From Deltaproteobacteria bacterium GWF2_42_12 (GTDB lineage: Bacteria > Desulfobacterota > GWC2-55-46 > UBA9637), in assembly GCA_001797665.1 (NCBI GenBank), contig MGQA01000036.1:1-49064 (forward strand): DNA of 49,064 nt, given 5' to 3'. This document shows, piece after piece, positions 5,842 through 49,064 of this stretch (within the stretch, counting starts at the first letter, position 1; the number at the start of each line of letters is the position of its first letter). The position numbers and the translations under genes are program-made. The notes beneath the pieces were generated by a model, which did no database searches, was not told the origin of the DNA, and was given only the letters and a program-made list of their open reading frames with translations.

Positions 5842-5844
5842 AAA

Positions 5845-6786: not shown

Positions 6787-6789
6787 GTT

Positions 6790-6847: not shown

Positions 6848-6851
6848 ACTT

Positions 6852-16585: not shown

Positions 16586-16589
16586 ATGT

Positions 16590-24048: not shown

Positions 24049-24054
24049 ATATTT

Positions 24055-24109: not shown

Positions 24110-24110
24110 A

Positions 24111-30138: not shown

Positions 30139-30380
30139 TTGCCACCGGCGGCTTGAAACTGATGAGTTGTTTCCATAACTTTAGAGGCATACTATGCCAA
30201 GAACTAACGAAGCGGCAGACACTGATCCCTGCTTAATACCCCTGCTTACTACTACAGGGGTAGGCTCTGCAGAGCCTGCCCCGTACTTGATACGGGGGAC
30301 AAGTTTGAAGGTAATTGAAAGGTTACAGCTTTTCGGATGGAAGCGGGGAGGCGCCCTTTAGATATTTCAATTTTTTCCGT
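30139..30380. other. non-coding stretch with one shared repeat
   Basis: No supported gene. The sequence CCTGCTTAATACCCCTGC and what follows (30226-30275) recurs almost unchanged at 33926-33973 upstream of the defence genes, including the hairpin CCCCTGCTTACTACTACAGGGG-like core and GGCTCTGCAGAGCC. ATGCCAAGAACTAACGAAGC at 30194 resembles a sequence at 31573; neither opens a convincing gene. Confidence 0.5.
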
Positions 30381-32922: not shown

Positions 32923-33915
32923 GTGGAATTAACCATTGGTCCGGTCTTATTTGACTGGAAAAAAGGCGAACTTTTAAGATTCTATGAAGAAGTAGCAGAT
33001 ATGCCTGTGGACAGGGTTTATCTTGGTGAGGTGGTGTGCGCAAAAAAGAAAGGACTGAGTGTCAAGGAGTTAGAGGGGGTTGGAAAAAAGCTGGAGAGGG
33101 CAGGAAAAGAGGTGGTTATTTCCAGTCTTGCGGTTGTAAGTAATGAGGAAGAGTTAAAATTAGTGCGGGATATTGCGCAACTTCCCTTTTCCATAGAAGC
33201 AAATGACATGTCTGTGTTTAATGTATCTTCCACCTCCGACCTCCCACCTCCCACTCGCCAGCTTATCGCCGGTCCGCATATTACAACATACAATGTTCCC
33301 TCCATAGAATTTCTTAAAACTATAGGAGTCAATAGGGTCGTTTTTCCTGTAGAACTTTCAAGGGATTCTGTAAGCTACTGCATTCGGAATACAGGTGTTG
33401 ATGCAGAGGTTTTTAGCCACGGCAAGGTGCCACTGGCCTTTTCATGGAGGTGCTACACATCAAGGGCTTATGGGCTTAATAAGACCAACTGCCAGTATCA
33501 CTGCAAACAACATCCTGATGGAATGTTATTAAAAACGATTGAAGGCGAGCCAACATTTACTGTTAACGGAACATCTATCTTAAGCGCCTTAACATATACG
33601 CTCGTAGAGGTGATAGAGGATTTACAGGCCATCGGCGTAAAGGCAATAAGGATTTCTCCGCAATATAAATATACAAAACAGATTGTGGATATTTTTAGAA
33701 AAAGGATTGACGGCATTATCGGACATGAAGAAGGACTTGCAATGCTTAAAGAGACAAGCCCGCAGGGTTCCCCGATTAAAGCATTCGAGGACAAGTTTTG
33801 TAATGGGTGGTACTTTGGCAAGGCAGGAAAAGAATATTTGGCGGCTCCTAAAAAGTCCATCTGTGGAGCCTGTTCCGACCCGATATCCATTGGGGGGAGG
33901 AATCTTGTAACATAG
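32923..33915 (+). CDS. ubiV: U32-family protein, UbiV-like (O2-independent quinone hydroxylation)
   Basis: 330 residues. N terminus LTIGPVLFDWKKGELLRFYEE and YLGEVVCAKKKG align with UbiV (YhbV). The four cysteines of the family 4Fe-4S site are present: Cys39, Cys177, Cys190, Cys194 (FSWRCYTSR, then TNCQYHCKQHPDG). UbiV works with UbiU to hydroxylate the ubiquinone ring without oxygen. GTG start with GAGG upstream. Residues about 101-112 (SSTSDLPPPTR) come from a run of 7-nt repeats. The C terminus has an extra Cys pair (CGACSD) beyond the E. coli length. UbiU itself is not intact in the window; see 33986. Confidence 0.8.
   Translation: MELTIGPVLFDWKKGELLRFYEEVADMPVDRVYLGEVVCAKKKGLSVKELEGVGKKLERAGKEVVISSLAVVSNEEELKLVRDIAQLPFSIEANDMSVFNVSSTSDLPPPTRQLIAGPHITTYNVPSIEFLKTIGVNRVVFPVELSRDSVSYCIRNTGVDAEVFSHGKVPLAFSWRCYTSRAYGLNKTNCQYHCKQHPDGMLLKTIEGEPTFTVNGTSILSALTYTLVEVIEDLQAIGVKAIRISPQYKYTKQIVDIFRKRIDGIIGHEEGLAMLKETSPQGSPIKAFEDKFCNGWYFGKAGKEYLAAPKKSICGACSDPISIGGRNLVT
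33228..33254. repeat. heptamer run inside ubiV
   Basis: ACCTCCG, ACCTCCC, ACCTCCC in tandem, in frame, adding Ser/Pro-rich residues not expected in the family. Confidence 0.6.
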
Positions 33916-33985
33916 CTTGCTCCGCTCCCTGCTTAATACCCCTGCTTACTACTACAGGGGCAGGCTCTGCAGGGACAGGCTTGCA

Positions 33986-34048
33986 TATGGAGCTTTTTAC
34001 TTTGCCGCTTGATACAAATGGCCTTAAAAAGGTATGTGAAAACCGATG
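33986..34048 (+). pseudogene. possible 5' remnant of ubiU
   Basis: A 20-codon frame (MELFTLPLDTNGLKKVCENR, then TGA) aligns by position with the start of UbiU: MEL at 1-3, Leu-Lys at 13-14 and Glu-Asn at 18-19. UbiU is the obligate partner of UbiV and often adjacent. If correct, the defence island begins right after this point and removed the rest. The match is short, so this is tentative. Confidence 0.3.
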
Positions 34049-34061
34049 AGGATATAATAAT

Positions 34062-37000
34062 ATGACCGACAGACATCCTATCCGTGAAGGCCAACTTATT
34101 ACCGGAGCGCTGTTTAATGAGCCGATGCGTGTGGAGACCATAAAGTCTAACGGTATCAATACATGGGTTGCGGGCCTCGTAGGAACACAAACAGAACGGT
34201 TTCGCAAGGTCACACTCACTTCCAGCGACATTGAAGCACTTACTATTATTGATTCGCAATTCAACTATACCGGCGACGGACGACTTCTCCGTCTTGGTAT
34301 TCAGGCATATTCTCTTGGAATTGCTTATGAATTTGACCCATATTTCGGCCTCTCTATCTCCCGTGTTGACCCGCTTCCGCATCAACTTGAGGCAGTCTAT
34401 GACTATTTGCTTAAACTTGCCCGCGTCCGTTTTCTGCTTGCAGATGATGCAGGTGCAGGAAAGACAATTATGGCGGGGCTTCTTATTCGGGAACTTAAAC
34501 TCAGAGGGCTTGCCGACCGCATTCTTATTGTCTGCCCTGCAAACCTTGCCTTTCAATGGCAAAGAGAACTTAAAGAAAAGTTTGATGAGCAGTTTTTGGT
34601 TCTGAAGGGGCAAGACATACGGGACCAATTTGGTGTAAACCAGTGGCTTGAACAGAAACGAGTTATTACCTCACTTGACCTTGCTAAACGCACAGAGATA
34701 CTGCCAGGTCTTCGCCAAGTTCATTGGGATATTGCTATTGTAGATGAAGCCCACCATATGTCATGGACACCTCCATCACGAAAAACTGCAAGATATGCAC
34801 TTGGCGAACTCCTAAGAGATACTACAGATCACATGCTTCTTCTCACTGCAACGCCTCATAAGGGAGACCCTGCCAATTTCAGCCTTTTTCTGCAACTCCT
34901 CGATGCCGATGCTTATGCGGATGTCAAGTCAATCCGTGAGGCAATGGACCGAAAACGTGCCCCTTTTTATTTACGCCGAACAAAAGAGGCAATGATATAT
35001 TTTCCTGAACGGCAGCCTGACGGGACATGGGTGGCTAAAAAGATATTTACTAAACGCATCCCTCATACTGTAGATTTTCAAATAGACGGTACCGAATTAG
35101 ACCTGTACAGGGATGTTACTCGCTTTGTGAAAAAACAGAGTGCCATGGCGGCTGCACAGGGGGATGACCCAAGGGCACGGGCTGTCGGCTTTCTCATGTC
35201 TTTATACCAGCGCCGTCTTGCATCAAGCACTTATTCATTACGTCATTCCCTTGAAAACCGCATAAAACGTCTTGAAGATGGTTTGACTCATGCACAGGAA
35301 TTGGTAAGGCTTGCCCCACCAGAACTCCCAACCCCTGAAGAACTGGAAGAAATGGAAGAGAGTGAACGCGAGCATCTTGAAGAGATGATAGATGCCATTA
35401 CCCTTACAGGAAATACCCAGCAGATTCGTGAGGAGATTAAAGAAATCAGGCAATTCGTTGCACAAGCACAAGCCGTAGAAGACTCGGGAGTGGAGGCAAA
35501 ACTCTCCCGTTTAAAAGAACTTCTCCAAAAGCAAGGATTTTTCGACCATCCAGATAAAAGACTCCTACTATTTACAGAATTCAAAGATACACTTGATTAC
35601 CTCATGAGCCGTTTGAAGTCATGGGGCTTTAGGGTAGGATGCATCCATGGCAGCATGAAATCCGGCTCACGGGATGAACCGGGCAGCCGTCTTTATGCAG
35701 AACAGCAATTCAGAGAAGGCAATATTCAGGTTCTTGTAGCCACAGAGGCAGCAGGAGAAGGCATAAACCTCCAGTGCTGTAATATCCTATTTAACTATGA
35801 CATTCCCTGGAACCCCAACCGCCTTGAACAGCGGATGGGCAGGATACATCGCTATGGTCAACGTAAGGACTGTCTGATATTTAACTTTGTGGCTACAAAT
35901 ACGATTGAGGGACGGGTGCTGCAGCGCCTATTTGAAAAGCTCCAGGAGATCAGAGATGCCCTTGATGACGATGCGGTATTTAATGTGGTGGGAGAGGTTT
36001 TGCCCTCTGCCCATATAGAGCGGGTGCTCAGAGACTATTATGCCGGTCAATTGGGAGATGCCGACCTTGAAGAACGGCTCCTCAAAAATGTTGATGCAGA
36101 ACAGTTTCGCGCTATTTGCCGTAACGCCCTTGAAGGACTCGCGTCTAAAAAACTCAACCTTGAGATGCTTATTGAGCGAAGGGCTCGTGCCCAGGAACAT
36201 CGGGTGGTGCCTGAAACTATTGCCCGGTTTATTCGGGAGGCAGCCGAGTATATCCCTATCAATATAAAATTCATTCCGAATCTTTCCCATACATTTGAAC
36301 CCGGAAGAACCCCTTCTGTGCTCAGACGCTATGAAACCGTACCTGACTGGAAACTCCCTGCTTTAGCAAACAGGTATCCCCGATGCTCAACTGATAGAGA
36401 GACTGCCGAAAAAAATAGCATTGAATGGGTTACACCAGGCCATCCCCTGTTTGAAGCAGTTCGCAGGCACACACTATCTCTGGCACAGGAGTCTTTTGGG
36501 AAAGGGGGGTGTTTTTATTCACTTCAGCATGATGCTCCGGCAAGACTTGACTTTTACCGTGCACGTGTAGTTGATGGCATTGGTAACATTATTCATGAAA
36601 GACTCTTTGCAGTTGAGATTACTGAAAATGGAGAGCCCTGTCTCCGTGAGCCGGGAATACTTGGAAATTTCATACCTGCCAAAGAAATTGAAAAACTTCC
36701 ATCTGTTTCTATGATGTCAGAGTCATCTGAGTGGCTTAATGAAAATGCCCTCAAACCCTTTATTGAAGAGGTCAAGGCTGAGCGGCTTGCCGAGGTAGAG
36801 CGTATCTCGGCACATATAGAGATGTCCTTGACTGAATTACTGCAAAGGGTAGATGAAGAGATTGGAAAGGCAGCGGCAGAGGTTGAACAAAAGGTTCAGG
36901 GCGCAGAAGGACGGCTTGCACAGGCGGAGGCCCGGCATTCAGAACTTTTTAACCGCCGTGAAAGAAGGCGGGAGGAACTTAATCGCCAGAGTTCTCTATC

Positions 37001-37490
37001 GCTTCAGGCAGTGGAACGAATTGCAAGCGTTATTATTCTTCCACATCCTGAGAGCGAGACCCCTGAAGTAAGACGGCTGAGACCCAACTTTGAGACTGAG
37101 GCTACTGCAATGCAGGCGGTGATAGAATACGAACGTGCACAGGGTCGTCAGGTCTTTGATGTCCATGAAAAGAATTTAGGCTATGATATTACAAGTCTTG
37201 ACCTGAACTCAGGCGATTTAAGGCTTATTGAGGTTAAAGGCATTGGTGATACAACGGGAACCATTCTCCTAACTCCGAATGAACGGCGCGTTGCCGAAGA
37301 CCGCAGGGATTGTTACTATCTTTATGTGGTTACCAATTGCAATACAGAACCTCAGATGCAGGAGCCAATCAAAGACCCGGCAAGGTTTGAATGGAATGAG
37401 GTGACAAAAGTCGCACATTACTACCTATCGGTTGATGCCATGACCAAGCCGATGCAGGTTAAAGAGGATCAGTCTCCTTATGGGAAATAG
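34062..37490 (+). CDS. SNF2/RapA-type helicase with C-terminal DUF3883
   Basis: 1142 residues. Helicase core: Walker A DDAGAGKT (128-135), DEAH (228-231), LTATPHKG (261-268), and motifs V-VI ATEAAGEGINLQ and RMGRIHRYGQ (near 570-600). Then a long linker, a coiled coil (about 885-985, Glu/Arg/Ala rich), and a DUF3883 domain (about 1000-1110; GYDITSLD, then LIEVKG and LTPNERRVAED), a fold often attached to defence helicases and possibly nuclease-like. DISARM class 1 uses a comparable SNF2 helicase (DrmD). First gene of the module, 150 nt before the DUF1016 gene. The start MTDRHPIREG lacks a clear Shine-Dalgarno. Confidence 0.88.
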   Translation: MTDRHPIREGQLITGALFNEPMRVETIKSNGINTWVAGLVGTQTERFRKVTLTSSDIEALTIIDSQFNYTGDGRLLRLGIQAYSLGIAYEFDPYFGLSISRVDPLPHQLEAVYDYLLKLARVRFLLADDAGAGKTIMAGLLIRELKLRGLADRILIVCPANLAFQWQRELKEKFDEQFLVLKGQDIRDQFGVNQWLEQKRVITSLDLAKRTEILPGLRQVHWDIAIVDEAHHMSWTPPSRKTARYALGELLRDTTDHMLLLTATPHKGDPANFSLFLQLLDADAYADVKSIREAMDRKRAPFYLRRTKEAMIYFPERQPDGTWVAKKIFTKRIPHTVDFQIDGTELDLYRDVTRFVKKQSAMAAAQGDDPRARAVGFLMSLYQRRLASSTYSLRHSLENRIKRLEDGLTHAQELVRLAPPELPTPEELEEMEESEREHLEEMIDAITLTGNTQQIREEIKEIRQFVAQAQAVEDSGVEAKLSRLKELLQKQGFFDHPDKRLLLFTEFKDTLDYLMSRLKSWGFRVGCIHGSMKSGSRDEPGSRLYAEQQFREGNIQVLVATEAAGEGINLQCCNILFNYDIPWNPNRLEQRMGRIHRYGQRKDCLIFNFVATNTIEGRVLQRLFEKLQEIRDALDDDAVFNVVGEVLPSAHIERVLRDYYAGQLGDADLEERLLKNVDAEQFRAICRNALEGLASKKLNLEMLIERRARAQEHRVVPETIARFIREAAEYIPINIKFIPNLSHTFEPGRTPSVLRRYETVPDWKLPALANRYPRCSTDRETAEKNSIEWVTPGHPLFEAVRRHTLSLAQESFGKGGCFYSLQHDAPARLDFYRARVVDGIGNIIHERLFAVEITENGEPCLREPGILGNFIPAKEIEKLPSVSMMSESSEWLNENALKPFIEEVKAERLAEVERISAHIEMSLTELLQRVDEEIGKAAAEVEQKVQGAEGRLAQAEARHSELFNRRERRREELNRQSSLSLQAVERIASVIILPHPESETPEVRRLRPNFETEATAMQAVIEYERAQGRQVFDVHEKNLGYDITSLDLNSGDLRLIEVKGIGDTTGTILLTPNERRVAEDRRDCYYLYVVTNCNTEPQMQEPIKDPARFEWNEVTKVAHYYLSVDAMTKPMQVKEDQSPYGK

Positions 37491-37597
37491 GTAATATCTA
37501 TTCAAATAGGTAATGAATTAGGTAATGTAGCTTGTTGGTTTTGACAAGATAATAATATCACGAAATGCCGAAGTGATAAGATTATAAAGAAAGGTTG
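37490..37597. repeat. island direct repeat R1 (three GGTAAT plus hairpin)
   Basis: GGTAAT at 37490, 37509 and 37521, then AAGATAATAATATCAC, an 11-nt loop and GTGATA (37556-37578). The same arrangement recurs at 44636-44735 after the DUF499 gene. Either the ends of an inserted module or paired regulatory sites; here it lies in the helicase/DUF1016 gap. Confidence 0.7.
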
Positions 37598-37640
37598 TAA
37601 TATCAATTTGTGCCGCAGGCTGTGGCAGAATTGATGCTGT

Positions 37641-38690
37641 ATGAGAACCACTATGGATAATAATATCTCAAGAGTTTTGACCGGTTATACTGAGCTTTTG
37701 AATACTTTAAAAGAGCGGATACGCAAGGCCCAGATACGGGCAACCTTGTCAGTAAACCGTGAACTGGTGTTGCTTTATTGGCAAATCGGTCAAGAAATCC
37801 TTACAAGACAGGCAAGGGAAAACTGGGGTTCAAAGGTTATTAACCGCCTTGCTGCTGACCTTAGACGTGAATTTCCTGATATGAAAGGATTTTCGTACAG
37901 AAATCTAATTTTTATGCGGGGCTTCGCCGAGGCTTTTTCTGACAAGGCAATTGTGAAACAACTTGTTTCACAAATGCCATGGGGGCACATCATCCGCATA
38001 ATGCAATTGGTCAAAGACTCCTCTGAACGTGAATGGTATATCCGTCAAACTATAGAGAATGGCTGGTCACGAAACATTCTCGTATTGCAGATAGAAAGCA
38101 ATCTTTACCACCGGCAGGGCAAGGCAATCAGTAATTTCAGAAAAACGCTTCCTTCGCCGCAGTCCGACCTCGCTCATCAGACCCTAAAGGACCCTTATAT
38201 TTTTGATTTTCTCACTCTTGACAAAGAAACTCACGAACGTGCTGTTGAAAAAGAACTTGTCAATCACATCACGAAATTCCTCCTTGAGCTTGGTGCTGGC
38301 TTTGCTTTTGTGGGTAAACAGTTTCATCTGGAAGTCTCAGAACAGGATTTTTATATAGACCTCCTCTTCTATCACACGCGTCTGCATTGTTATGTTGTCG
38401 TAGAGTTAAAGACAGGGGACTTCAAGCCTGAGTATGCAGGGCAAATCAATTTTTATCTGTCAGCCCTTGATGATATTGTAAAAGCGCCTGAAGATAATCC
38501 CTCTATTGGAATCATCTTATGTGCCACAAAGGATAGAATTCTCGCCGAATACGCCCTGCGTGATATGAAAAAACCTATCGGTGTGGCTGAATGGAAAACA
38601 AAACTTACTCGCTCTTTACCGGCAAAACTGAGGAAAAACCTGCCGACAATTGAGGAGATAGAGGCGGAGTTGGGGAAAGAGAGCAAATAA
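37641..38690 (+). CDS. DUF1016 (YhcG-type) PD-(D/E)XK nuclease-family protein
   Basis: 349 residues. The N-terminal helical domain (about 10-170; LVLLYWQIGQEIL and LRREFPDMKGFSYRNL are typical) and the C-terminal PD-(D/E)XK fold (about 185-330) with Asp in DFYIDLLFYH and the Glu-x-Lys in VVVELKTGDFKPEYAGQ match the family. Catalytic residues are intact. DUF1016 proteins are often found beside restriction and methylase genes. Start at 37641 or 37653 (both ATG), with no clear ribosome-binding site. It ends 5 nt before the methylase gene, so the two are co-transcribed. Confidence 0.85.
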   Translation: MRTTMDNNISRVLTGYTELLNTLKERIRKAQIRATLSVNRELVLLYWQIGQEILTRQARENWGSKVINRLAADLRREFPDMKGFSYRNLIFMRGFAEAFSDKAIVKQLVSQMPWGHIIRIMQLVKDSSEREWYIRQTIENGWSRNILVLQIESNLYHRQGKAISNFRKTLPSPQSDLAHQTLKDPYIFDFLTLDKETHERAVEKELVNHITKFLLELGAGFAFVGKQFHLEVSEQDFYIDLLFYHTRLHCYVVVELKTGDFKPEYAGQINFYLSALDDIVKAPEDNPSIGIILCATKDRILAEYALRDMKKPIGVAEWKTKLTRSLPAKLRKNLPTIEEIEAELGKESK

Positions 38691-38695
38691 CTTAA

Positions 38696-41600
38696 ATGAT
38701 CCCAAAAGAATGCAAACGTCTTGCCGAAGTGGATTTCCCGATTGCGGTGGTTTCAAAGCATTCGGCGAGGGAGAAGTCTATCAGGCATGGGCATCCGAGC
38801 ACACTGCATTTATGGTGGGCAAGGCGGCCCCTTGCGGCGTGCAGGTCGATGCTTTTGGCGCTTCTGCTTCCAGACCCGTGTGACCATCACTGCCCGGCGG
38901 ATTTCAAGGAAAAGGCAAGAGGACTTCTGCCCAAGGTGCAGGGAACTGCCGGGCCTAAAGATATGGATTTACGGCACGCGCTCCTGAAATTCATAGGGGA
39001 CTTTGCCAACTGGGACTTTTCGACTAATCCGGCTTATCTGGAAGTATCACGCGGGCTTGTGAAGGCGGCGCAGGGAGAGGAGCCGCCTCTTGTTGTTGAC
39101 CCCTTTGCGGGCGGAGGCTCGATTCCTCTGGAGGCGTTACGTCTTGGCTGTGAGGCTTTTGCGAGCGATTTGAACCCGGTTGCCTGTCTTATACAAAAGG
39201 TAATGCTTGAGGACATCCCGCGCCACGGCCCGAAGCTGGCCGAGGAACTGCGGCGAGTTGGTGCGGAAATCAAGAAAGCCGCCGAGAAAGAGCTTACGGA
39301 ATTTTTTCCGGCCGACCCGGACGGGGCAAGACCGATAGCCTATCTATGGGCAAGGACTGTCAGATGCGAGACGCCCAACTGCGGGGCAGAGATGCCGCTG
39401 ATGCGCTCTTTCTGGCTCTGCAAAAAGCCGGGGCGCAAACGCGCCCTGAGATATAAGGTCGTTCAACCAAAAGGCAAACCTCCAGAAGTCGAGTTTGAGA
39501 TCTTCGAGCCTAAAACGGATAAAGATGTTCCAGATGGCACTGTAACAAGGGCCAAGGCTACCTGTCTTTGCTGCAATATAGTCCTTTCACCCGAGCGTGT
39601 GCGCGCACAGCTTTCTGCTCAGCGGGGCGGAGCGGATGCGGTCTTTGACGAAAAGGGCAACCGGATTGGCGGTGCAAGGCTTTTGGCCGTTGTAACGCTC
39701 CGGCCCGGCGAGACAGGACGGCAGTACCGTCTGCCGATAGAGGCGGACTATACGGCTATCTGGAAAGCAAGAAAGACGTTGGAGAAAATTACTAAAGAGA
39801 AACTACCGAATGGTTTATGCCCTGTGCCGGATGAGCCTTTGCCGCCAACTAATACAAATTCGTTTCGTATCCCAAATTATGGCATGAAGCAGTGGTCAGA
39901 TGTTTCTACAGCTCGACAGAAAATTGCCTTGTCCACCATGGCGCAAAAAGTTAATCAATCCGATAGCGATAGTAATCTAAAAGAATTATTGGCGTTAACA
40001 GTTGGGCGAAGTGCCGACTTCAATTCCAGCCTTAATAGCTGGGCTACAGGTGGAGAATTCATTAGAAGCACTTTTGCACGTCAAGCACTTTCTATGGTGT
40101 GGGATTTCTGTGAGGTAATGCCATTTTCGCCAGAGTCGGGCGGATACGATGGAGCTGTCGATTGGATAGGCCGGGTAGTTGATGCTTTGTCTCCTTTGGC
40201 AGAAAACATAGGCCAAGTTCAGCAAGCTGACGCTTGCGAATCGCCATTGCCAGATCAAGCCGTGACCGTATGGTTTACCGACCCGCCGTATTATGACGCT
40301 GTTGGCTATGCAGAGCTATCTGATTTTTTCTTTGTATGGTTGAAACGGGCGCTACTCAATCATCCTATGCTTAAAGACCCATATGATTTGAACAATCCTC
40401 TTGTTCCGAAACAGCGGGAATGTGTCCAGGATGAAACTTACTCATCTGTTGACGGCAAACCAAAAAACAGCGCATTCTTTGAAGAAACAATAGCTTGTGC
40501 CTTTGCTGAAGGTCGTCGTGTCGTCAAAGATTGCGGCATAGGTTCAGTAGTTTTTGCTCACAAGTCAACCGAAGGCTGGGAAGCTCTTCTTTCCGGCATG
40601 ATAAAAGGTGGCTGGACAATTACAGGCTCTTGGCCTATTGCTACAGAGAGGCCCGGACGACTCCGCTCTCAGGAATCCGCCGCTCTCGCAACCAGCGTCC
40701 ACCTCGTCTGCCGTCCTCGTCCTGAGAACGCGCCTGTTGGTGACTGGGGTGAGGTTCTTCGTGAGCTTCCCAATCGCGTCGGTGACTGGATGGAGCGGCT
40801 CCAGACAGAAGGTATCCGCGGCGCAGACCTCGTCTTCGCCTGCATAGGCCCGGCGCTTGAGATATTCAGCCGCTATTCAAAGGTTGAAACAGCAGACGGG
40901 CGGGAGGTTAAGCTTGCCGAATATCTTGAGAAGGTCTGGGAGGTGGTCGGTAGAACAGCGCTTGAGCATATACTCGGAACAGCCGAGGCAAAAGCCCGCA
41001 ACGGCGCCGCCGGGGCGCTTGAAGAAGATGCCCGCCTGACGGCCTTATTTTTATGGACGCTTCAAAGCACAAATGGGGAAAAAGGAAAAAGTAAAAAGGG
41101 AAAAGGTAAAAGTGAAGACGAGGAGGGCGAGGAAGTTGAAGAAGGGTATGAGGATGGTGAAGCACCGAAAGGAAAGCCAAAAGGTTTTAGTCTTGTGTTT
41201 GATGTTGCTCGCCGCTTTGCCCAGCCTTTGGGCATTCATCTTCCTGAATGGGAAGGCCGCATAATCAAGACGGAAAAGGGCGTTGTCCATCTTCTCCCTA
41301 TCTCAGAGCGTGCAAAAGTTCTCTTTGGTGAAGAAGGCGCTGATGTGGTTGCAGACATGCTGGAGAAAGACCCGGCATCGGCGCAACTTTCACTTTTTGA
41401 AAATGCAGAGGCATCGGTGCCTGAATTAAAGGTGCGCGGCCGCAAGAAGAAGAAAGGTGCGGATATTTCAGATGAGCAGTTAAAAACGCGCCGCGAAGCC
41501 ACAACGCTCGACCGCGTCCACGCAGCAATGATCCTTCAGTCCAGCGGCAGGGCAAATGCCTTGAGGGCACTGCTTAAATCAGAAGTGGAAAGAAGCCCTG

Positions 41601-41698
41601 ATCTCTTGAGACTTGCCAATGCGCTCTCGGCATTGTATCCTAAAGACAGCGAGGAGAAGCGCCTCCTTGATGCAATGCTTTTGGCGGTGCCAAGATAG
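38696..41698 (+). CDS. DUF1156 adenine-specific DNA methylase
   Basis: 1000 residues. DUF1156 N terminus (VDFPIAVVSKHSAREKSIRHG and PSTLHLWWARRPLAA split over 13-55), SAM motif DPFAGGGSIPLEALRLG at about 135-151, and catalytic motif TDPPYYD at about 527-533, which fits N6-adenine methylation. Four Cys in CETPNCGAEM and ATCLCCN may bind zinc. The segment 39840-40560 is visibly more A+T-rich than its flanks, and a Lys/Gly-rich insert near residue 795 is encoded by 7-nt repeats. It would mark self DNA in the module. Confidence 0.88.
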   Translation: MIPKECKRLAEVDFPIAVVSKHSAREKSIRHGHPSTLHLWWARRPLAACRSMLLALLLPDPCDHHCPADFKEKARGLLPKVQGTAGPKDMDLRHALLKFIGDFANWDFSTNPAYLEVSRGLVKAAQGEEPPLVVDPFAGGGSIPLEALRLGCEAFASDLNPVACLIQKVMLEDIPRHGPKLAEELRRVGAEIKKAAEKELTEFFPADPDGARPIAYLWARTVRCETPNCGAEMPLMRSFWLCKKPGRKRALRYKVVQPKGKPPEVEFEIFEPKTDKDVPDGTVTRAKATCLCCNIVLSPERVRAQLSAQRGGADAVFDEKGNRIGGARLLAVVTLRPGETGRQYRLPIEADYTAIWKARKTLEKITKEKLPNGLCPVPDEPLPPTNTNSFRIPNYGMKQWSDVSTARQKIALSTMAQKVNQSDSDSNLKELLALTVGRSADFNSSLNSWATGGEFIRSTFARQALSMVWDFCEVMPFSPESGGYDGAVDWIGRVVDALSPLAENIGQVQQADACESPLPDQAVTVWFTDPPYYDAVGYAELSDFFFVWLKRALLNHPMLKDPYDLNNPLVPKQRECVQDETYSSVDGKPKNSAFFEETIACAFAEGRRVVKDCGIGSVVFAHKSTEGWEALLSGMIKGGWTITGSWPIATERPGRLRSQESAALATSVHLVCRPRPENAPVGDWGEVLRELPNRVGDWMERLQTEGIRGADLVFACIGPALEIFSRYSKVETADGREVKLAEYLEKVWEVVGRTALEHILGTAEAKARNGAAGALEEDARLTALFLWTLQSTNGEKGKSKKGKGKSEDEEGEEVEEGYEDGEAPKGKPKGFSLVFDVARRFAQPLGIHLPEWEGRIIKTEKGVVHLLPISERAKVLFGEEGADVVADMLEKDPASAQLSLFENAEASVPELKVRGRKKKKGADISDEQLKTRREATTLDRVHAAMILQSSGRANALRALLKSEVERSPDLLRLANALSALYPKDSEEKRLLDAMLLAVPR
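41083..41117. repeat. heptamer run inside the DUF1156 gene
   Basis: Units GGAAAAA, GGAAAAA, GTAAAAA, GGGAAAA, GGTAAAA in frame, encoding a Lys/Gly-rich linker followed by an acidic run. Similar purine-rich units occur after the stop at 41703-41745. Confidence 0.6.
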
Positions 41699-41766
41699 CA
41701 AGAAAGTAAAAAGGAAAAGGGCAAAAAATAAAAGTAAGTTTACTTTTTACTTATCTGGAGGAGTCT

Positions 41767-44523
41767 ATGGAACCCTGGTATAAGGTAGTCATACCCCGTA
41801 AGGAAGTCCGGGAAGGTCGTTCATTTAACCCGGATGAGTTCGCCATAGCCCTTGAGCAGGTTGTGGCAGGGACAGCGCCTGAGGATTACAGTAAGCCAAA
41901 ACAATTCTTCGCGCGCACATGCTTTACAAGGGCGCTCAGGGAACATGCAGGAATGGTTTTAAGGCGGCTGGCAGGAAAAACCGAAAACACGGCGCCGGTG
42001 CTTACCCTTATTACACAGTTTGGCGGCGGCAAGACTCATACTCTCACATCTCTTTATCATATAGCCAGAACTGGTGATAAAGCGGCCAGTTATGCAGGCA
42101 TTTCAGACCTTATAAAAGGCGCAGGTCTTACAGAAGTCCCGCAAGCAAAAGTTGCCGTCTTTGTAGGTAATGCATGGGACCCTCGTGAAGGGCAGGAAAC
42201 TCCTTGGATTGACATTGCCCGGCAGTTGGCCGGCGAAAAGGGCATTGAAACGCTTGGAACATCTGCCAAAACCACACCACCCGGAACAGAAGCGCTTCTT
42301 CGACTCTTTAAGGCAGCAAACAGCCCTGTCCTTATCTTGATGGACGAAGTATTGAACTTCTTCAACCGTCATCGGAGCATGGCAGAGCCATGTTATGCAT
42401 TTTTCGACAACCTCTACAGGGCAATGACAGGCACCACGCATGGCGCAATGTTAATCAGCCTGCCCAGAAGTCAGGTGGAAATGACAGACTGGGACCTTCA
42501 GTGGCAGGAGAAGATAACCAAAGTAGTTAGACGTGTTTCAAAAGACCTGATAGCAAACGATGAGGCAGAAATCAGCGAGGTAATACGCCGGAGGCTGTTT
42601 GAGGATTTGGGAAGCGATAGAATACAGAAGAATATCGCAAAGGTATATGCGGATTGGTGCTTTGAAAGGAGGGCTCAGCTTCCGCCGGAATGGACTGCTG
42701 TAGATACTGCAACGACAGAAGCTAAGGCAAGGGAGTTTCTCAGGACACGGTTTGAGGCGTGTTACCCATTCCACCCGGCGACCCTTTCGGTTTTTCAGAG
42801 AAAGTGGCAGGCGCTTACACAGTTTCAGCAGACGCGTGGAACACTTGCAATGTTTGCCCAGTGGATTTCATGGGCATATCGTGAAGGATATCAGAGGGCA
42901 CGGCGCGAGCCGCTTATTACCATCGGCTCTGCGCCGCTTGATGTGTCTGAATTTAGAGGGGTTATCCTTGGTCAACTTGGTGAAATGCGGCTTGTAGCAG
43001 CTATCGAGGCAGACATTTCAGGACTACAATCCCATGCAAGGGCTCTCGATGCAGATACCAAAGGGCCGCTCAGGGATATACACAGTCGTGTGGCTACAAC
43101 GATTCTTTTTGAGTCTTCTGGCGGGCAGGTAGATAAAGTAGCACACTTACCCGAACTACGATTTGCGCTCGGTGAGCCGGAAATCGATACCACTTCGATA
43201 GACAATGCTGCACTTGCCTTGGAGGCAAAGGCATTCTTTATTCGTAAAGTAGGCACAGATGGCTTTCAGGTCCGATATCAGCCTACCTTAAAGAAGGTGG
43301 TAAGCGACAGACGTGCTTCCTTGGATGAAGACACAGAGATTAAGCCGATAATGCGGATGCTTATTCAAAAGGAGTTCAGCAGAGGAGCAAGCATCCCGAT
43401 AGTTCATTTTCCAACAGACAGTGCGGAGATACAGGATTCTCCTAAATTAACGCTTGTAGTAATTGAACCAGAATCAGAATGGAATGGAAGCGGTTCATTG
43501 CGCCAGCAAATTGCCGAATGGACAAAACAGAGAGGTAAGTCACCGAGACTTTATCCGGGGTCGCTTGTCTGGTGCATTAGAAAGCCGGGGCGGGAACTGA
43601 GAGAAAAGGTAGAGCTTTGGCTTGCGTGGAAACGAGTTGAGAGAGAAGTTGCAGAAGGCACCCTCGGAGCGGATTTTGACCGCACTGACCGTTCCGAAAT
43701 TCACTCTAAGGTAACTGATGCTGAGGAGGCGGCAAAAGATGAAGTCTGGGGCGGGTATCGTTTTGTAGTGATTTCTGATAATCAAGGGGTTAACGGTCTC
43801 AAGGTCATTGACCTCGGGGCTGGCCATTCAAGCAGCGGAGAGACCCTTTGCGGAAGAATAATTACAGCATTGAAATCCCAGGCTCTGCTTAACGAATCTG
43901 TCGGCGCCGGGTATATAGACCGCAATTGGCCTCCTGCTTTGAAAGAAAGCGGTGCATGGCCACTTATGAGCCTCAGGCAGAGTTTCCTTAATGGGTCTTT
44001 AACAAGGCTTCTTGACCCTGATAGTATATTGCGTTTCAAGATTGTTGAGTTTGTTGGGCGTGGAGATTTCGGTTTAGCATCCGGGCAAAAGCCTGATGGA
44101 ACTTACGAAAGGGTCTGGTATAAGGAACTCATCGCACCGGAAGAAGTATCATTTGAATCTGGAGTCTTTCTTTTAAATAAAGGTAAAGCCGCCGCCATTA
44201 AGACAGGGGGCGCACCTGTTATAGTAACACCTGCCGAGCCGCAACCGGAACCAATTTTACAACCGATTCCCGGGCCAGGGGCCGAACCTGAAATTGGAAC
44301 ACGTACTCGCACCCTTCACCTTTCCGGGACTGTTCCGCCTGAACTATGGAATCGTCTCGGGACTAAAATCCTTCCCAAACTTAAGTCAGGGGCTGAGCTG
44401 CGTGTATGTGTTGATTTTCGGGTTACATTAAATGCAGCCCTTGTCAGTAATATGAAATCCGAACTCCGTGTTATACTCGATGAGCTGGGTTTGTCGGACA
44501 AGGTGCAAATTGAGGAGAGTTAA
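41767..44523 (+). CDS. DUF499 P-loop ATPase
   Basis: A 918-residue AAA-type ATPase. Walker A in LITQFGGGKTHTL (residues 84-90 core), Walker B in PVLILMDEVLNFF (about 189-195), then an arginine-rich region. The C-terminal 60 residues (LHLSGTVPPELWNRLGTKIL) form a small separate domain after a Pro-rich linker near 820-840. Strong GGAGGAG before ATG. DUF499 proteins are known as companions of DUF1156 methylases in defence islands, filling a role like the large P-loop proteins of BREX. The N terminus MEPWYKVVIPRKEVREGRSF is characteristic. Confidence 0.88.
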   Translation: MEPWYKVVIPRKEVREGRSFNPDEFAIALEQVVAGTAPEDYSKPKQFFARTCFTRALREHAGMVLRRLAGKTENTAPVLTLITQFGGGKTHTLTSLYHIARTGDKAASYAGISDLIKGAGLTEVPQAKVAVFVGNAWDPREGQETPWIDIARQLAGEKGIETLGTSAKTTPPGTEALLRLFKAANSPVLILMDEVLNFFNRHRSMAEPCYAFFDNLYRAMTGTTHGAMLISLPRSQVEMTDWDLQWQEKITKVVRRVSKDLIANDEAEISEVIRRRLFEDLGSDRIQKNIAKVYADWCFERRAQLPPEWTAVDTATTEAKAREFLRTRFEACYPFHPATLSVFQRKWQALTQFQQTRGTLAMFAQWISWAYREGYQRARREPLITIGSAPLDVSEFRGVILGQLGEMRLVAAIEADISGLQSHARALDADTKGPLRDIHSRVATTILFESSGGQVDKVAHLPELRFALGEPEIDTTSIDNAALALEAKAFFIRKVGTDGFQVRYQPTLKKVVSDRRASLDEDTEIKPIMRMLIQKEFSRGASIPIVHFPTDSAEIQDSPKLTLVVIEPESEWNGSGSLRQQIAEWTKQRGKSPRLYPGSLVWCIRKPGRELREKVELWLAWKRVEREVAEGTLGADFDRTDRSEIHSKVTDAEEAAKDEVWGGYRFVVISDNQGVNGLKVIDLGAGHSSSGETLCGRIITALKSQALLNESVGAGYIDRNWPPALKESGAWPLMSLRQSFLNGSLTRLLDPDSILRFKIVEFVGRGDFGLASGQKPDGTYERVWYKELIAPEEVSFESGVFLLNKGKAAAIKTGGAPVIVTPAEPQPEPILQPIPGPGAEPEIGTRTRTLHLSGTVPPELWNRLGTKILPKLKSGAELRVCVDFRVTLNAALVSNMKSELRVILDELGLSDKVQIEES

Positions 44524-44758
44524 AGCATAACAATTTCACCCATTCATACTGAGAACCCCATATTTCTTGTTGCTATGTGGAAACCTGGCGGGTCGAATGC
44601 CTTGGTCGGGGCCGGGGGCGCTTTGGAGGAAAAGAGGTAATATCTCTAAAAGTGGGTAATAAAGAGGGTAATATTACGAAATAGCGGGCTGTTGATAAGA
44701 TAATCATATCACGAGTTGTTGAAGTGATAAGATAACCCAAATCTTACAGGAGGACACC
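44524..44758. repeat. island direct repeat R2 and the flank of phasin remnant 1
   Basis: R2 (44636-44735) matches R1: GGTAAT at 44636, 44655 and 44667, then AAGATAATCATATCAC, an 11-nt loop and GTGATA (44707-44729). Downstream, AGGAGGACACC precedes the first truncated phasin start and is identical to the bases before the intact gene. A 21-codon frame at 44575-44640 (ending LEEKR) has no recognisable identity. Confidence 0.65.
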
Positions 44759-44878
44759 ATGACTGACATACTTGATAAGGCAATATTAATTGGATTGGGC
44801 TTGGAGAAAAGAATAAAGGATGTTTTGAATGAGTTGGCGAATCCAGCTACGAGTCATGCATTATCAAAAATTGCCTAA
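44759..44878 (+). pseudogene. truncated phasin gene, copy 1
   Basis: About 80 nt from the ATG match the intact gene at 47057 with mostly silent differences; both begin MTDILDKAILIGLGLEKR. Homology ends after NEL, and an unrelated tail reaches a stop (39 codons). Ribosome-binding site AGGAGG intact. Confidence 0.85.
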
Positions 44879-44929
44879 AATCGCGCAAAGTGATATATTC
44901 AAATTGGATGCAAATGGTGGAGGTATGTT

Positions 44930-45124
44930 ATGAGTAAAAAAGAATTACTAATACATGAGATTGAGCAGGTTCCAGACTTTCTCATTGACGAAGTGATGGA
45001 CTTTGTTCATTTTTTAAAGACAAAGGCAATTACAGAAAAGCTGGATACTGCCATTGCCAGCGAATCCTCTCTAAAAAAAGACTGGTTAAGGCCGGAGGAG
45101 GATGAAGCGTGGCAAGGTTTATAA
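44930..45124 (+). CDS. DUF2281-type antitoxin
   Basis: 64 residues with the typical start KELLIHEIEQVPDFLIDEV and MDFVHFLKTK, ending in an acidic Trp-rich tail (RPEEDEAWQGL). DUF2281 proteins pair with PemK/MazF or PIN toxins; here the stop overlaps the toxin GTG by 16 nt. Ribosome-binding site GGAGGT. Confidence 0.8.
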   Translation: MSKKELLIHEIEQVPDFLIDEVMDFVHFLKTKAITEKLDTAIASESSLKKDWLRPEEDEAWQGL

Positions 45125-45441
45125 AAGGCGATATTGTTGTCGTTCCTTTTCCATTCTCTGATTTAACTCAAGCCAAAAGGCGCCCTGCCTTAGTCATCAC
45201 AGCATTGGATGGTGATGACTTAATCCTTTGTCAGATAACCAGCCAATCTATTAAAGATAATTATGCAATCCCCATAGATGATAGAGACTTTGCTAACGGA
45301 ACCTTAAAACAGCCAAGTAATGCACGACCCAACCGCTTATTTACAGCTGACAGTCATATTGTCTTGTATAAAGTAGGCAATCTTAAGCCAGACAAACTAA
45401 ACCAGATTATTGATAGAATAATTGAAATTATTCGTAAATAA
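45109..45441 (+). CDS. MazF/PemK-family toxin (mRNA interferase)
   Basis: 110 residues starting at GTG 45109. Family features: GDIVVVPFPFSDLTQAKRRP with the catalytic Arg region, PALVITALD and ICQITSQ-like strand LCQITSQSI, and SNARPNRLFTAD. Probably cleaves mRNA at short sequences. Partner of the upstream DUF2281 antitoxin. This pair is bounded by phasin remnants 1 and 2. Confidence 0.85.
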   Translation: MARFIKGDIVVVPFPFSDLTQAKRRPALVITALDGDDLILCQITSQSIKDNYAIPIDDRDFANGTLKQPSNARPNRLFTADSHIVLYKVGNLKPDKLNQIIDRIIEIIRK

Positions 45442-45479
45442 AAATTCTCAGAATTTGAGAGTACAGAGGGAGGCAGAAC

Positions 45480-45587
45480 ATGACCGATATATTTGACAAT
45501 GCCATCCTGATTGGGATGGGTTTGGAGAAAAGGGGTGTGAGCAAAGAGCCTCAGGAACGGTTTAAACAAGCTGATTATGTGATATAA
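45480..45587 (+). pseudogene. truncated phasin gene, copy 2
   Basis: MTDIFDNAILIGMGLEKR at the start matches the phasin N terminus, then an unrelated tail to a stop (35 residues). GGGAGG precedes the ATG. More diverged at nucleotide level than copy 1. It sits just after the mazF-like gene. Confidence 0.8.
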
Positions 45588-45794
45588 GGACAATGGAGAT
45601 AATGCTTGCTAATAAGGGTATGGCGGAAATGGTAATGGGTTTGTTAGGGCGGTTGTAGTAGTGAGGGGTAGTTTAGATGCAAGTTAATTGTTGTAAGTCC
45701 AGTTTTTGGACTTTGTTGGGGTTAAGATGCCAGAGGTATAATCCTCCAAAAAAAACCCAAAGCGCGCTTGGTGTGATAAATCGGATTTTGGGAA
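45588..45794. other. non-coding stretch upstream of the Fic gene
   Basis: No clear gene. A 21-codon frame at 45594-45659 (start MEIMLANKGMAEMVMG) has no recognisable family. Confidence 0.4.
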
Positions 45795-45868
45795 TTCTGC
45801 AATAAGAAACTTTGTTATTGCAGGATAAGGCATAATTCTGCAATAATAAGCAGCGATATTGCAATATC
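45795..45868. promoter_or_regulatory. candidate operator array for the Fic gene
   Basis: TTCTGCAATAA at 45795 and 45836, the inverse TTATTGCAG at 45815, and the palindrome GATATTGCAATATC at 45855-45868, ending 24 nt before the start codon. Repeated TTGCAATA sites in front of a Fic gene with a C-terminal winged helix suggest autorepression. Confidence 0.5.
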
Positions 45869-45891
45869 CATCAATAAGAAAGAGGTAGGCA

Positions 45892-47073
45892 TTGAACCCA
45901 AAAGATTTTGAATTTTCCCAGACAGGCAGGTGTATAAAGACATTAAACGGATACTGGGCATTTGTGCCAAATCCATTACCTCCTGTTATCATGTATGACA
46001 AAAACCTTATCAGACTGCTTTCTGAGGCTGACAGATTATTAGGCGAACTGTCAGGGACAGGGAGATTGCTGCCTAACCCCTATCTCCTCATCGGTCCGTA
46101 TGTCCGCCGTGAGGCGGTTTCGAGTTCGAGAATCGAAGGCACGCAGGCATCCCTGAGCGACCTTTTTTTCTATGAGGCGGCTAAATTAGAAGAACCCAGC
46201 GCGCCTGATGTAATGGAAGTGCATAATTATGTTCAGGCTATGGAGTATGGAATTAAACGTCTCGCGAAACTGCCAATCTCCCTGAGGTTGATTAACGAGA
46301 TACATAAAATTCTGATGAAAGGAGTAAGGGGCGAACACGCGACCCCTGGAGAAATTCGTCGCAGCCAAAACTGGATAGGCCCTCCCGGTTGTACACTCAA
46401 TGAAGCCACTTATGTCCCTCCTCCAATAGAAGAAATGAAAGAGATATTGAGCGCATGGGAGAAATACATCCATTCAAGTCCTGATGAGCCGCCCTTAATA
46501 CAATGCGCCATGACCCATTACCAGTTTGAAGTGATTCATCCGTTTCTTGACGGCAACGGCCGTATTGGAAGGCTTATAATTACCTTTTTCCTCTACGAAA
46601 AGGGATATCTGACTCAACCACTTCTATATCTGTCTGCCTTCTTTGACAAATACAGAGAAGAATACTATAACAGCCTGCTTGCCGTGAGTCAGAGAGGTGA
46701 CTGGCGCGGGTGGATAGACTTTTTTTTGCGTGGAGTAATAACCCAGTCTCAAGACGCCATATCAGATGCAAAAAAAATACTTGAACTCCATGCTGAATAT
46801 CAAAATATTCTTGAAAAAACAAAGAAGATTCCTGAATCAGCCCATAGATTGATAGATGAACTTTTTATCAATCCTGTCATTGCTATTTCGGGATTGAGCA
46901 AAAAGTGGAATATTTCTTTTAATTCTGTAAAAACAGGGGTAAAGAGGCTTGTGGATTTAGGAATTCTCCGTGAGGTCACAGAAAGGAAACGCAATAAACT
47001 TTTTGTTGCCACAAAATTAATGGATTTATTGACCGCTAAAAGCAAAGGAGGACACCATGACCGACATACTTGA
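45892..47073 (+). CDS. Fic-family AMP-transferase with C-terminal winged helix
   Basis: 393 residues from TTG 45892 (AGAGG six bases upstream). Catalytic motif HPFLDGNGRIGRL near residue 216 is intact. The N-terminal inhibitory motif SSSRIEGT near residue 80 marks a self-inhibited class II Fic protein. The last 80 residues (ISGLSKKWNISFNSVKTGVKRL) form a winged helix. The final residues (KGGHHDRHT) are read from the leader and start of the phasin gene in another frame, so the native C terminus was lost or replaced at the junction. Likely nucleotidylates a cellular target. Confidence 0.88.
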   Translation: MNPKDFEFSQTGRCIKTLNGYWAFVPNPLPPVIMYDKNLIRLLSEADRLLGELSGTGRLLPNPYLLIGPYVRREAVSSSRIEGTQASLSDLFFYEAAKLEEPSAPDVMEVHNYVQAMEYGIKRLAKLPISLRLINEIHKILMKGVRGEHATPGEIRRSQNWIGPPGCTLNEATYVPPPIEEMKEILSAWEKYIHSSPDEPPLIQCAMTHYQFEVIHPFLDGNGRIGRLIITFFLYEKGYLTQPLLYLSAFFDKYREEYYNSLLAVSQRGDWRGWIDFFLRGVITQSQDAISDAKKILELHAEYQNILEKTKKIPESAHRLIDELFINPVIAISGLSKKWNISFNSVKTGVKRLVDLGILREVTERKRNKLFVATKLMDLLTAKSKGGHHDRHT

Positions 47074-47452
47074 CAAAGCAATATTAATTGGCTTGGGTTT
47101 GGAGAAAAGGGTAAAAGATGCCTTGAATGAGCTGGTAAGTGAGGGAAAAGAGGCAAAGACAGGAGAAGGTGGAGAACTTCCACCAAAACAGGAATTGGAA
47201 AATAAATTGGTAGATGAAGGGGTGAAGGCCGTGAGGGAGCTTGTTGCTACGGTGAAGGCAGGGAAGGAAAAGGTTGATAAGGAGATAGAAGAGGCGGTAA
47301 AGCATCTCCTGGAAAAGTTTAAGGTTGCAACAAAGGATGATATGGAGATAATAGAAAAGATGGCACAGGTGGCAAGGGAAAAGGTGGATAAGCTGGAGAA
47401 AAGGATCGAAGAGTTGGAGAAAAAGGCCGTGAATCGTGACCGTAAGCCGTGA
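47057..47452 (+). CDS. phasin-like coiled-coil protein
   Basis: 131 residues. A hydrophobic start (ILDKAILIGLGL) is followed by long amphipathic helices rich in Lys, Glu and Val (about 45-125), resembling phasin or granule-associated proteins that coat polyester granules. No PHA synthase is in the window, so the substrate is open. AGGAGG before the ATG. The last residues (VNRDRKP) are read from a heptamer repeat. Followed by ubiB. Confidence 0.7.
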   Translation: MTDILDKAILIGLGLEKRVKDALNELVSEGKEAKTGEGGELPPKQELENKLVDEGVKAVRELVATVKAGKEKVDKEIEEAVKHLLEKFKVATKDDMEIIEKMAQVAREKVDKLEKRIEELEKKAVNRDRKP

Positions 47453-47498
47453 CCGTAAAGAACTACGGACACGAATAACGGACATGGACAACGGTATT
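47431..47498. repeat. heptamer two-arm repeat between phasin and ubiB
   Basis: Left arm CGTGAAT, CGTGACC, GTAAGCC, GTGACCG; right arm with ACACGAA, TAACGGA, CATGGAC, AACGGTA. Provides the phasin stop codon and most of the gap. Confidence 0.55.
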
Positions 47499-47502
47499 CT
47501 TT

Positions 47503-49064
47503 ATGCAAACCAGAACCTATCAAAACATACGCCGGCTTCATAGGATAGTAGCCATCCTCATCAAGTACGGCTTTGGCGGGCTTGTAAAGGAGCTCAAGCT
47601 CTTTCCATTCCTCTCTTCATTTGAAAGGCTCTTGTTTTTCAGAAGGGCAAAAAAGGAATTAAGCATACCAGAGAGGATAAGACTGGTTCTTGAAGAACTT
47701 GGCCCTACATTTATAAAGCTCGGCCAGGTGGCATCCACACGAGCAGACCTTCTGCCTCCGGACTGGCTTGAAGAGCTTAAAAAGCTTCAGGATGCTGTGC
47801 CGCCGTTTTCCTTTGTAAAGGTGAGGGAAGTGGTGGAGCATGGCCTCAAGGCGCCGCTCCATGAAAAATTTAAGACCTTTGATGAAGCGCCTTGCGCATC
47901 TGCATCTATTGCACAGGTGCATTATGCAATTCTGCCTTCTGGCCAGGAGGTAGCGGTAAAGGTAAAACGGCCTGGCATAGATAAAATCATAGAGTCAGAT
48001 ATTTCTGTAATGCACACAATTGCATATCTTCTGGACAGGTATGTGCCGCAGGCAAAGAGATACAGAGCTATGGAAGTTGTTGATGAATTTGCAAGGGTCA
48101 TACATAAAGAACAGGATTTCACCGTGGAGGGTTCACATGCCAGCAGGTTTGCAAAGATGTTTGAGGACGACCCGACGGTCAAGATACCAAAGGTTTTCTG
48201 GGACTACACAACCAACGAGGCGCTTACTCTGGAGCGGATTTACGGCACGCCGCTTGATGAGACTGAAAAGATAAAGGCCCAGGGCCTGGATGTCCGAAAG
48301 ATTGCAGAAAACGGCATAAGGGCATTTTTCAGGCAGGTTTTTGAATTTGGATTTTTCCATGCAGATTTACACCCTGGGAATATCTTTGCAAGCCCTGATG
48401 GCACTATCATCTATCTTGATTTTGGGATTATGGGGCGGCTTGATGAGAACTTAAGAAAATATCTTGCAAGCCTTCTATTTTATCTTGTAAAGCAGGACTA
48501 TTACAGCATGGCGCAGGTGCATCGTGAGATGGGGCTTATTACTAAGGAAGTTGATATCCATGAATTTGAGGATGCCTTGCGGGATATTTGCGAACCGGTA
48601 TTCGGACGCACGCTGGAACAGATAAACATGTCTGAGCTTATAATGAAACTCATCCGCACAGCGCGGCGCTTTCAGATGAGGCTTCAGCCAAATCTCCTGC
48701 TTTTACAGAAGTCTATGGTAATAATTGAAGGTGTTGGCAGGCAGATTTATCCTGATGTGAATATGTGGGAGGTCGCAAAGCCATTAATCTACAAATGGAT
48801 GCTCAAGGAAAAGGCCTCGCCAAAGCGGATTTATGAGAGGGGCAAAGGCAGGGTAGAAAATTTTGTGGAAATGGCTACAGATGTGCCGTATCAGGTGCAT
48901 TCTATTTTAAACAGGACTCTAAATGAAGAATTAAAGATTGGTTTTGTCCATCATAAATTGGATGTGTTGTCAGATGAAATAGGTAATCTTGGCTATAGAA
49001 TTGCTAATGGGATGATAATTGCGGCGCTGGTTATAGGCGCATCGCTTCTCGCAATAGCAAACAA
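47503..49064 (+). CDS. ubiB: UbiB/AarF/ABC1 atypical kinase, incomplete at the window edge
   Basis: 520 codons are present without a stop. Family motifs: the KxGQ motif in TFIKLGQVASTRADLLP, the Ala-rich loop SASIAQVHYA, catalytic VKRP (invariant Lys), FHADLHPGN and the DFG-like LDFGIMGRL. C-terminal membrane helix (MIIAALVIGASLLAIAN) at the very end. UbiB proteins assist ubiquinone synthesis and extraction of its lipid precursors, which fits the nearby ubiV. ATG 47503 gives MQTRTYQNIRRLHR, the usual start. Confidence 0.93.
   Translation, partial: MQTRTYQNIRRLHRIVAILIKYGFGGLVKELKLFPFLSSFERLLFFRRAKKELSIPERIRLVLEELGPTFIKLGQVASTRADLLPPDWLEELKKLQDAVPPFSFVKVREVVEHGLKAPLHEKFKTFDEAPCASASIAQVHYAILPSGQEVAVKVKRPGIDKIIESDISVMHTIAYLLDRYVPQAKRYRAMEVVDEFARVIHKEQDFTVEGSHASRFAKMFEDDPTVKIPKVFWDYTTNEALTLERIYGTPLDETEKIKAQGLDVRKIAENGIRAFFRQVFEFGFFHADLHPGNIFASPDGTIIYLDFGIMGRLDENLRKYLASLLFYLVKQDYYSMAQVHREMGLITKEVDIHEFEDALRDICEPVFGRTLEQINMSELIMKLIRTARRFQMRLQPNLLLLQKSMVIIEGVGRQIYPDVNMWEVAKPLIYKWMLKEKASPKRIYERGKGRVENFVEMATDVPYQVHSILNRTLNEELKIGFVHHKLDVLSDEIGNLGYRIANGMIIAALVIGASLLAIAN

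What the first reader, a model, noticed from the sequence alone, without database searches (positions are those of the whole stretch)
44759..47452. Phasin 5' end present three times: serial integration hotspot
Seen: starts at 44759, 45480 and 47057 encode nearly the same first 17-18 residues; two are truncated and each follows a different cassette (defence module, DUF2281/MazF pair, Fic). Copies 1 and 3 share AGGAGGACACC before the ATG and differ mainly at silent sites, so they look like alleles from different genomes rather than fresh duplications. Inferred: cassettes integrate at the phasin start and bring their own donor 5' end, regenerating the gene while pushing old ends upstream.
Basis: partly seen in the sequence, partly recalled or inferred. 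Interest (0 to 1): 0.75.

Follow-up and report, generated by a model that had tools for sequence, protein, structure and literature searches.

The report
Stacked gene starts at cassette hotspot
In an uncultured groundwater bacterium, defence and toxin genes have piled up in front of one small quinone-operon gene, and two cut-off copies of that gene's beginning remain as scars, which most likely record recombination between related strains rather than a dedicated inserting enzyme.

Summary
The 5' end of a small gene (UbiK/BMFP-like; "phasin" is the weaker match) occurs three times, at 44759, 45480 and 47057, and nowhere else in the genome. ubiV-thisgene-ubiB is a class-wide operon: in 49 other genomes the ubiV-to-gene gap is 1-317 bp (median 69), here 13.1 kb. 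Family members G002, G003 and G007 are empty sites with one gene. Other relatives carry parts of the same stack. G001 (another genus) has the same truncated-start/DUF2281-MazF junction followed by a full gene. G006 has an internally deleted Fic cassette fused to the gene at the window's Fic joint, but no truncated start. Copies differ mostly at synonymous sites, so they look like alleles, not fresh duplications.

[quoted passage not shown] A new variant of a known kind, confined to one family in the sample. The exact route is inferred.

The parts
32923..33915 (+). ubiV (U32 family), left flank; its last codons differ from the single-copy relatives G002/G003/G007
   Evidence: NF047965 over cut-off; tail shared with G006 and G004
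34062..37490 (+). HmaA helicase
   Evidence: PADLOC HmaA E 1.6e-173
37641..38690 (+). YhcG/DUF1016 nuclease
   Evidence: Pfam E 1e-68; PADLOC PDC-S02
38696..41698 (+). HmaB DNA methylase (DUF1156)
   Evidence: PADLOC HmaB E 1e-118
41767..44523 (+). HmaC ATPase (DUF499); homology to the G050 locus ends at its stop codon
   Evidence: PADLOC HmaC E 1e-93; boundary
44748..44842 (+). Truncated start c1: Shine-Dalgarno and 28 codons of the UbiK-like gene, then a joint; short ORF of 39 aa
   Evidence: the same joint is in G001
44843..45470 (+). Toxin-antitoxin cassette: DUF2281 (44930-45124) and PemK/MazF (45109-45441)
   Evidence: Pfam; 94% nt identity to G001:C57:2463-3084
45471..45533 (+). Truncated start c2: Shine-Dalgarno and 18 codons
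45797..45823 (.). Palindrome CTGCAATA..TATTGCAG upstream of Fic, similar sequence upstream of Fic in G041 and G043 and in the G006 remnant
45892..47073 (+). Fic (SoFic-like); its reading frame runs into the UbiK-like gene and stops there
   Evidence: Pfam/PADLOC; ORF
47046..47056 (+). Joint of Fic 3' end and the Shine-Dalgarno AGGAGGACACC; Fic codons AAA GGA GGA supply it
   Evidence: same joint in G006
47057..47452 (+). Full copy c3, UbiK/BMFP-like ('phasin')
   Evidence: PF04380 E 2e-8; class-wide orthologue
47503..49062 (+). ubiB, right flank (runs off the window end)
   Evidence: TIGR01982 over cut-off

Best explanation
The gap between ubiV and the UbiK-like gene is a site of cassette turnover in this bacterial family. 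Shown: empty sites, the same cassettes and joints in other genera, and allele-like differences between the gene starts. Inferred: DNA from related cells carrying a cassette plus the start of the donor's gene recombined with the resident gene at that short homology, while the other end was sealed by end joining (one-sided homologous recombination, or a fragment that circularised and entered by a single crossover). This leaves the old start truncated upstream and the donor start in front of the rest of the gene, so the gene stays intact. Repeating this stacked c1, DUF2281-MazF, c2, Fic and c3; Hma sits upstream of c1. Later crossovers between the repeated starts made them mosaic.
For: ubiV and the gene are 1-317 bp apart (median 69) in 49 other genomes against 13,144 bp here. 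Empty family members: G002, G003, G007. G001 has the same c1/DUF2281 joint, with a full gene after MazF. G006 has 75 nt of the Fic upstream region plus the Fic 3' end joined to the gene exactly as at c3. MazF differs at only 3 of 108 codons synonymously between G000 and G001, against 104 of 518 (0.20) in ubiB, so the cassette is shared more recently than the flanks. c1 and G001a differ at 8 synonymous and 1 non-synonymous codons (neutral expectation 6.6 non-synonymous, P 1e-4). c1 codons 1-13 equal the G006 allele. Fic ends in AAAGGAGG, equal to the gene's Shine-Dalgarno, a possible microhomology. All long ORFs in the 13 kb are accounted for and none is an integrase. ComEC is present in all family members tested. 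A circularised fragment with a single crossover gave partial gene duplications of 109-950 bp in E. coli (PMC3240628).
Against: G006 has the Fic cassette with no truncated start, so duplication is not a necessary result. c1 and G001a differ again in codons 22-27 right next to the shared joint, which one crossover does not explain. Only two genomes show truncated starts. The order of events cannot be dated, and c3 being nearest G006 is not significant with 124 codons.
Confidence: 0.6

Rival explanations
1. [quoted passage not shown]
For: Topology and repeat length fit; the cargo is of the right kind; described as long and variable target duplications of the order of 100 bp (PMC3874152).
Against: Copies should start identical and the truncated one should decay neutrally. 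G001a/G001 are 79% identical with 13 synonymous and 3 non-synonymous codons; even if half the changes fell in the intact gene P is 0.03. For c1/c3 and c2/c3 alone this cannot be rejected.
Confidence: 0.17
2. Site-specific integrative elements that target the gene's 5' end and restore it, like SXT at prfC or IMEs at dusA, whose integrase is lost or supplied from elsewhere.
For: Replacement of a gene's 5' end is the known result of such elements (PMC8409611).
Against: No integrase in 13 kb; left joints at codons 28 and 18; cargo of 0.6-10 kb without mobility genes; G006 lacks the left repeat.
Confidence: 0.08
3. The truncated starts are retained because they are useful, for instance as short peptides or as translation-coupling leaders, and are not scars.
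For: The 39-aa ORFs of c1 and G001a keep the same length with mostly synonymous differences.
Against: Synonymous bias is confined to the gene-derived part and is explained by recombination with intact alleles; the DUF2281 gene has its own spacer and start; c2 has a different, unrelated tail.
Confidence: 0.07
4. Tandem duplication of the whole gene followed by decay, with cassettes falling in between.
For: Repeated starts in the same orientation.
Against: No 3' parts of the gene follow c1 or c2, no relative has two full genes here, and other relatives are empty sites.
Confidence: 0.05

Closest known systems
Hotspots without mobile elements driven by homologous recombination (Oliveira 2017, PMC5635113)
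   Same: Fixed core-gene flanks, varied cargo between relatives, no integrase
   Different: Here truncated starts of a flanking gene remain inside the insert, so one end was not simple flank-to-flank exchange
Restriction-modification insertion with long target duplication (Nobusato 2000, Furuta 2010, as summarised in PMC3874152)
   Same: About 100 bp direct repeats of the target around defence or toxin modules
   Different: Repeats differ like alleles and have different lengths
Homology-facilitated illegitimate recombination and circularised-fragment single crossover (PMC3240628)
   Same: Homology at one end, joining at the other; partial gene duplication in the single-crossover variant
   Different: Seen here only as a natural end product; not watched happening
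SXT/R391 ICEs at prfC and IMEs at dusA (PMC8409611, PMC2791158)
   Same: Incoming DNA supplies a new 5' end for the target gene
   Different: No tyrosine recombinase or constant attachment site here

Membership tests
5'-end-targeting integrative elements (SXT/prfC, dusA IMEs) | Encodes a site-specific integrase | tested here: not met
   All long ORFs between ubiV and the gene are Hma, YhcG, DUF2281, MazF and Fic
5'-end-targeting integrative elements (SXT/prfC, dusA IMEs) | Constant attachment core at both ends | tested here: not met
   Left joints at codon 28 and codon 18; none in G006
5'-end-targeting integrative elements (SXT/prfC, dusA IMEs) | Target gene gets a foreign 5' end and stays open | tested here: inconclusive
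   c3 is open; starts differ like alleles, but the donor is not identified
Insertion with long target duplication | Direct repeats of about 100 bp of the target around the insert, single copy in the empty site | tested here: met
   90 bp c1/c3, 78 bp in G001; single copy in G002/3/7
Insertion with long target duplication | Repeats derive from one sequence and are identical at insertion | tested here: inconclusive
   76-88% identical with synonymous bias; argues against for G001 (P 0.03) but not decisive for the window
Mobile-element-free recombination hotspot | Conserved core flanks with differing cargo in relatives | tested here: met
   Empty in G002/3/7; Fic remnant in G006; toxin-antitoxin pair in G001; further toxin-antitoxin and methylase inserts before ubiB in G007, G004, G001
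Mobile-element-free recombination hotspot | Raised homologous recombination at the flanking genes | tested here: inconclusive
   Mosaic starts and unequal divergence, but no population sample
HFIR or circular single crossover | Microhomology at the non-homologous joint | tested here: inconclusive
   AAAGGAGG shared by Fic 3' end and the Shine-Dalgarno; other joints show no clear one
HFIR or circular single crossover | RecA dependence and DNA uptake | not testable with these tools
   ComEC is present, which is also true of bacteria not known to be competent

The most novel reading that the evidence does not exclude
A gene start that serves as a repeated landing site: each incoming cassette carries a donor copy of the same 90-bp start, so cassettes can be stacked and later removed by ordinary recombination between starts, without any recombinase, while the gene always stays intact.
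Probability: 0.25. Interest if true: 0.6.

Novelty: new variant of a known kind. Interest (0 to 1): 0.42.

Why it matters
Many defence and toxin islands lack integrases, and how they are added is usually invisible. Here the scars, an empty site and partly shared stacks in sister genera let the steps be read and tested, and suggest that a flanking gene's start can supply the homology.

Tried and rejected
G032's 3' fragment near ubiB looked like a second broken gene but is a contig end within the gene. Orphan starts elsewhere in family genomes: none. Rfam families in 33800-47600: none up to E 1. Direct repeats at the other insert points of the operon in G004 and G007 (before aguA or ubiB): none, so duplicated ends are particular to the gene start. 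aguB-aguA, which follow the gene in other family members, are elsewhere in this genome (C45, behind gpmI) with no gene fragment beside them, so they do not explain the copies. The sequence after c2 (about 45534-45790) has no convincing homologue in relatives. Assembly error: c1 and c3 share no exact match longer than 16 bases (read from the alignment), and two joints recur in independent genomes, so it is unlikely.

Full report
Observation. The start of one small gene is present three times on the + strand: c1 at 44759, c2 at 45480 and the full gene c3 at 47057-47452. c1 and c3 align over 90 bp (87.8%, E 2e-25), from the Shine-Dalgarno to about codon 27; c2 and c3 over 56 bp (84%, E 3e-9). A degenerate pattern of the start finds three copies in the whole genome, all here, and none with the reversed control. 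The full protein matches BMFP/UbiK (PF04380, E 2e-8; NF047835, E 2e-4) better than phasin (PF05597, E 9e-4), all under cut-off, and it lies between a clear ubiV and a clear ubiB. It is therefore best called UbiK/BMFP-like.

Surroundings. Between ubiV and c1 lies an Hma-type defence set (HmaA, YhcG-like nuclease, HmaB, HmaC). Between c1 and c2 lies a DUF2281-PemK/MazF pair, and between c2 and c3 a SoFic-like Fic protein. These account for every long reading frame in the 13.1 kb; there is no integrase or transposase.

Relatives. ubiV, the UbiK-like gene and ubiB are adjacent across the class. In 49 other genomes with both on one contig the ubiV-gene gap is 1-317 bp, median 69, against 13,144 bp here. 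The public counterparts of the relatives are groundwater and subsurface 'Deltaproteobacteria' MAGs. Within the family, G002, G003 and G007 are empty sites (44-50 bp gap, one gene). G001, of another genus, has [truncated start]-[DUF2281-MazF]-[full gene], with the same joint after codon 28 (...TTGGCG/AATCCAGCTACG... in the window) and 94% nucleotide identity in the cassette; upstream of it is unrelated DNA and a DDE transposase gene. G006 has 75 nt of the region upstream of Fic and the last 30 nt or so of Fic joined to the gene as in the window; the Fic body is deleted and there is no truncated start. In G004 ubiV is followed by murI while the gene lies behind guaB, a break at the same place (gene names there from the translations, not from a profile search). 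The rest of the operon also takes inserts in this family: phd-vapC in G007, DNA methylase genes in G004, and a methylase with an EcoO109I-like fragment in G001.

Are the copies alleles or duplications? c1/c3 differ at 8 synonymous and 4 non-synonymous codons, G001a/G001 at 13 and 3, c1/G001a at 8 and 1. c1 and G001a, both truncated and sharing one joint, would be expected to differ at 6.6 non-synonymous codons if they had simply decayed (P 1e-4). Allowing half of the changes in an intact partner weakens the other comparisons: P 0.03 for G001a/G001, not significant for c1/c3 and c2/c3. So the allele reading is supported, strongly for c1/G001a and weakly for the window copies alone. In contrast MazF differs between G000 and G001 at only 3 of 108 codons synonymously, while ubiB differs at 20%: the cassette was shared after the two lineages split. 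The first 13 codons of c1 equal G006's allele while codons 14-21 equal G001a, which looks like crossing over inside the repeated start.

Joints. A Fic relative in G041 ends in ...KKGG-stop; here Fic codons AAA GGA GGA form the Shine-Dalgarno of the UbiK-like gene and Fic reads on to a stop inside it. This could be a microhomology joint. c1 keeps about 20 bp of native-looking sequence before its start (AAATCTTACAGGAGGACACC against AAATTTAAAGGAGGACACC in G002). The left joints differ: codon 28 for c1 and codon 18 for c2. Because ubiV and the gene are only about 50 bp apart, the constant right joint near the Shine-Dalgarno can be explained by selection to keep both genes intact (inference).

Mechanism. 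The facts fit entry of a donor fragment carrying a cassette and the donor's gene start, with homologous recombination in the start and end joining at the other side. Homology-facilitated illegitimate recombination does this, with 3-10 bp microhomology; in E. coli most products turned out to be single crossovers of circularised fragments that left a 109-950 bp duplication of the target gene (PMC3240628). Either could leave an old, truncated start upstream and an intact hybrid gene downstream. Long target duplication (PMC3874152) has the same topology but predicts identical repeats at birth. Integrase-driven 5'-end replacement as at prfC and dusA (PMC8409611) lacks its integrase and constant site here. 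Hotspots with no mobile elements and raised recombination at the flanks are well known (PMC5635113); what is added here is a readable record of stacking. ComEC is present in every family member tested, which allows but does not show DNA uptake.

Limits. Truncated starts were found in two genomes only, MAGs are incomplete (G001 has no detectable ubiV), no metagenome scan was available, and the order and number of events are inferred. Simple neutral simulations were used in place of a full codon model.

Noticed in passing
window 37541-37582 and 44692-44733: A 42-bp direct repeat (86%) lies between HmaA and YhcG and again just upstream of c1, flanking YhcG-HmaB-HmaC; possibly an operator or a recombination site.
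   Followed up: no
window 4251-6851, 24050-24110: A family of intergenic repeats (ACGCCGACACGGTCGGCTTGCTCCAT and AGGCAACC..GTTGCCGT) occurs several times in the window, REP-like.
   Followed up: no
window 25877-25979 and 16586-16687: A 103-bp direct repeat of 92% identity, both copies at or near gene borders in the NADH dehydrogenase gene region.
   Followed up: no
window 30226-30272 and 33926-33972: A 47-bp repeat (98%) downstream of ubiV, at the left edge of the insert, has a second copy 3.7 kb upstream.
   Followed up: no
L037, L054 (G004): In G004 the operon is broken between ubiV (now before murI) and the UbiK-like gene (now behind guaB), a rearrangement at the same spot.
   Followed up: partly
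L155 3335-5249 (this genome, C45): aguB-aguA, which sit between the UbiK-like gene and ubiB in other family members, lie behind gpmI in this genome.
   Followed up: partly
window 45797-45823: A TGCAATA-type palindrome upstream of Fic has similar sequence upstream of Fic relatives in G041 and G043, a likely operator that may now also govern the UbiK-like gene and ubiB.
   Followed up: partly
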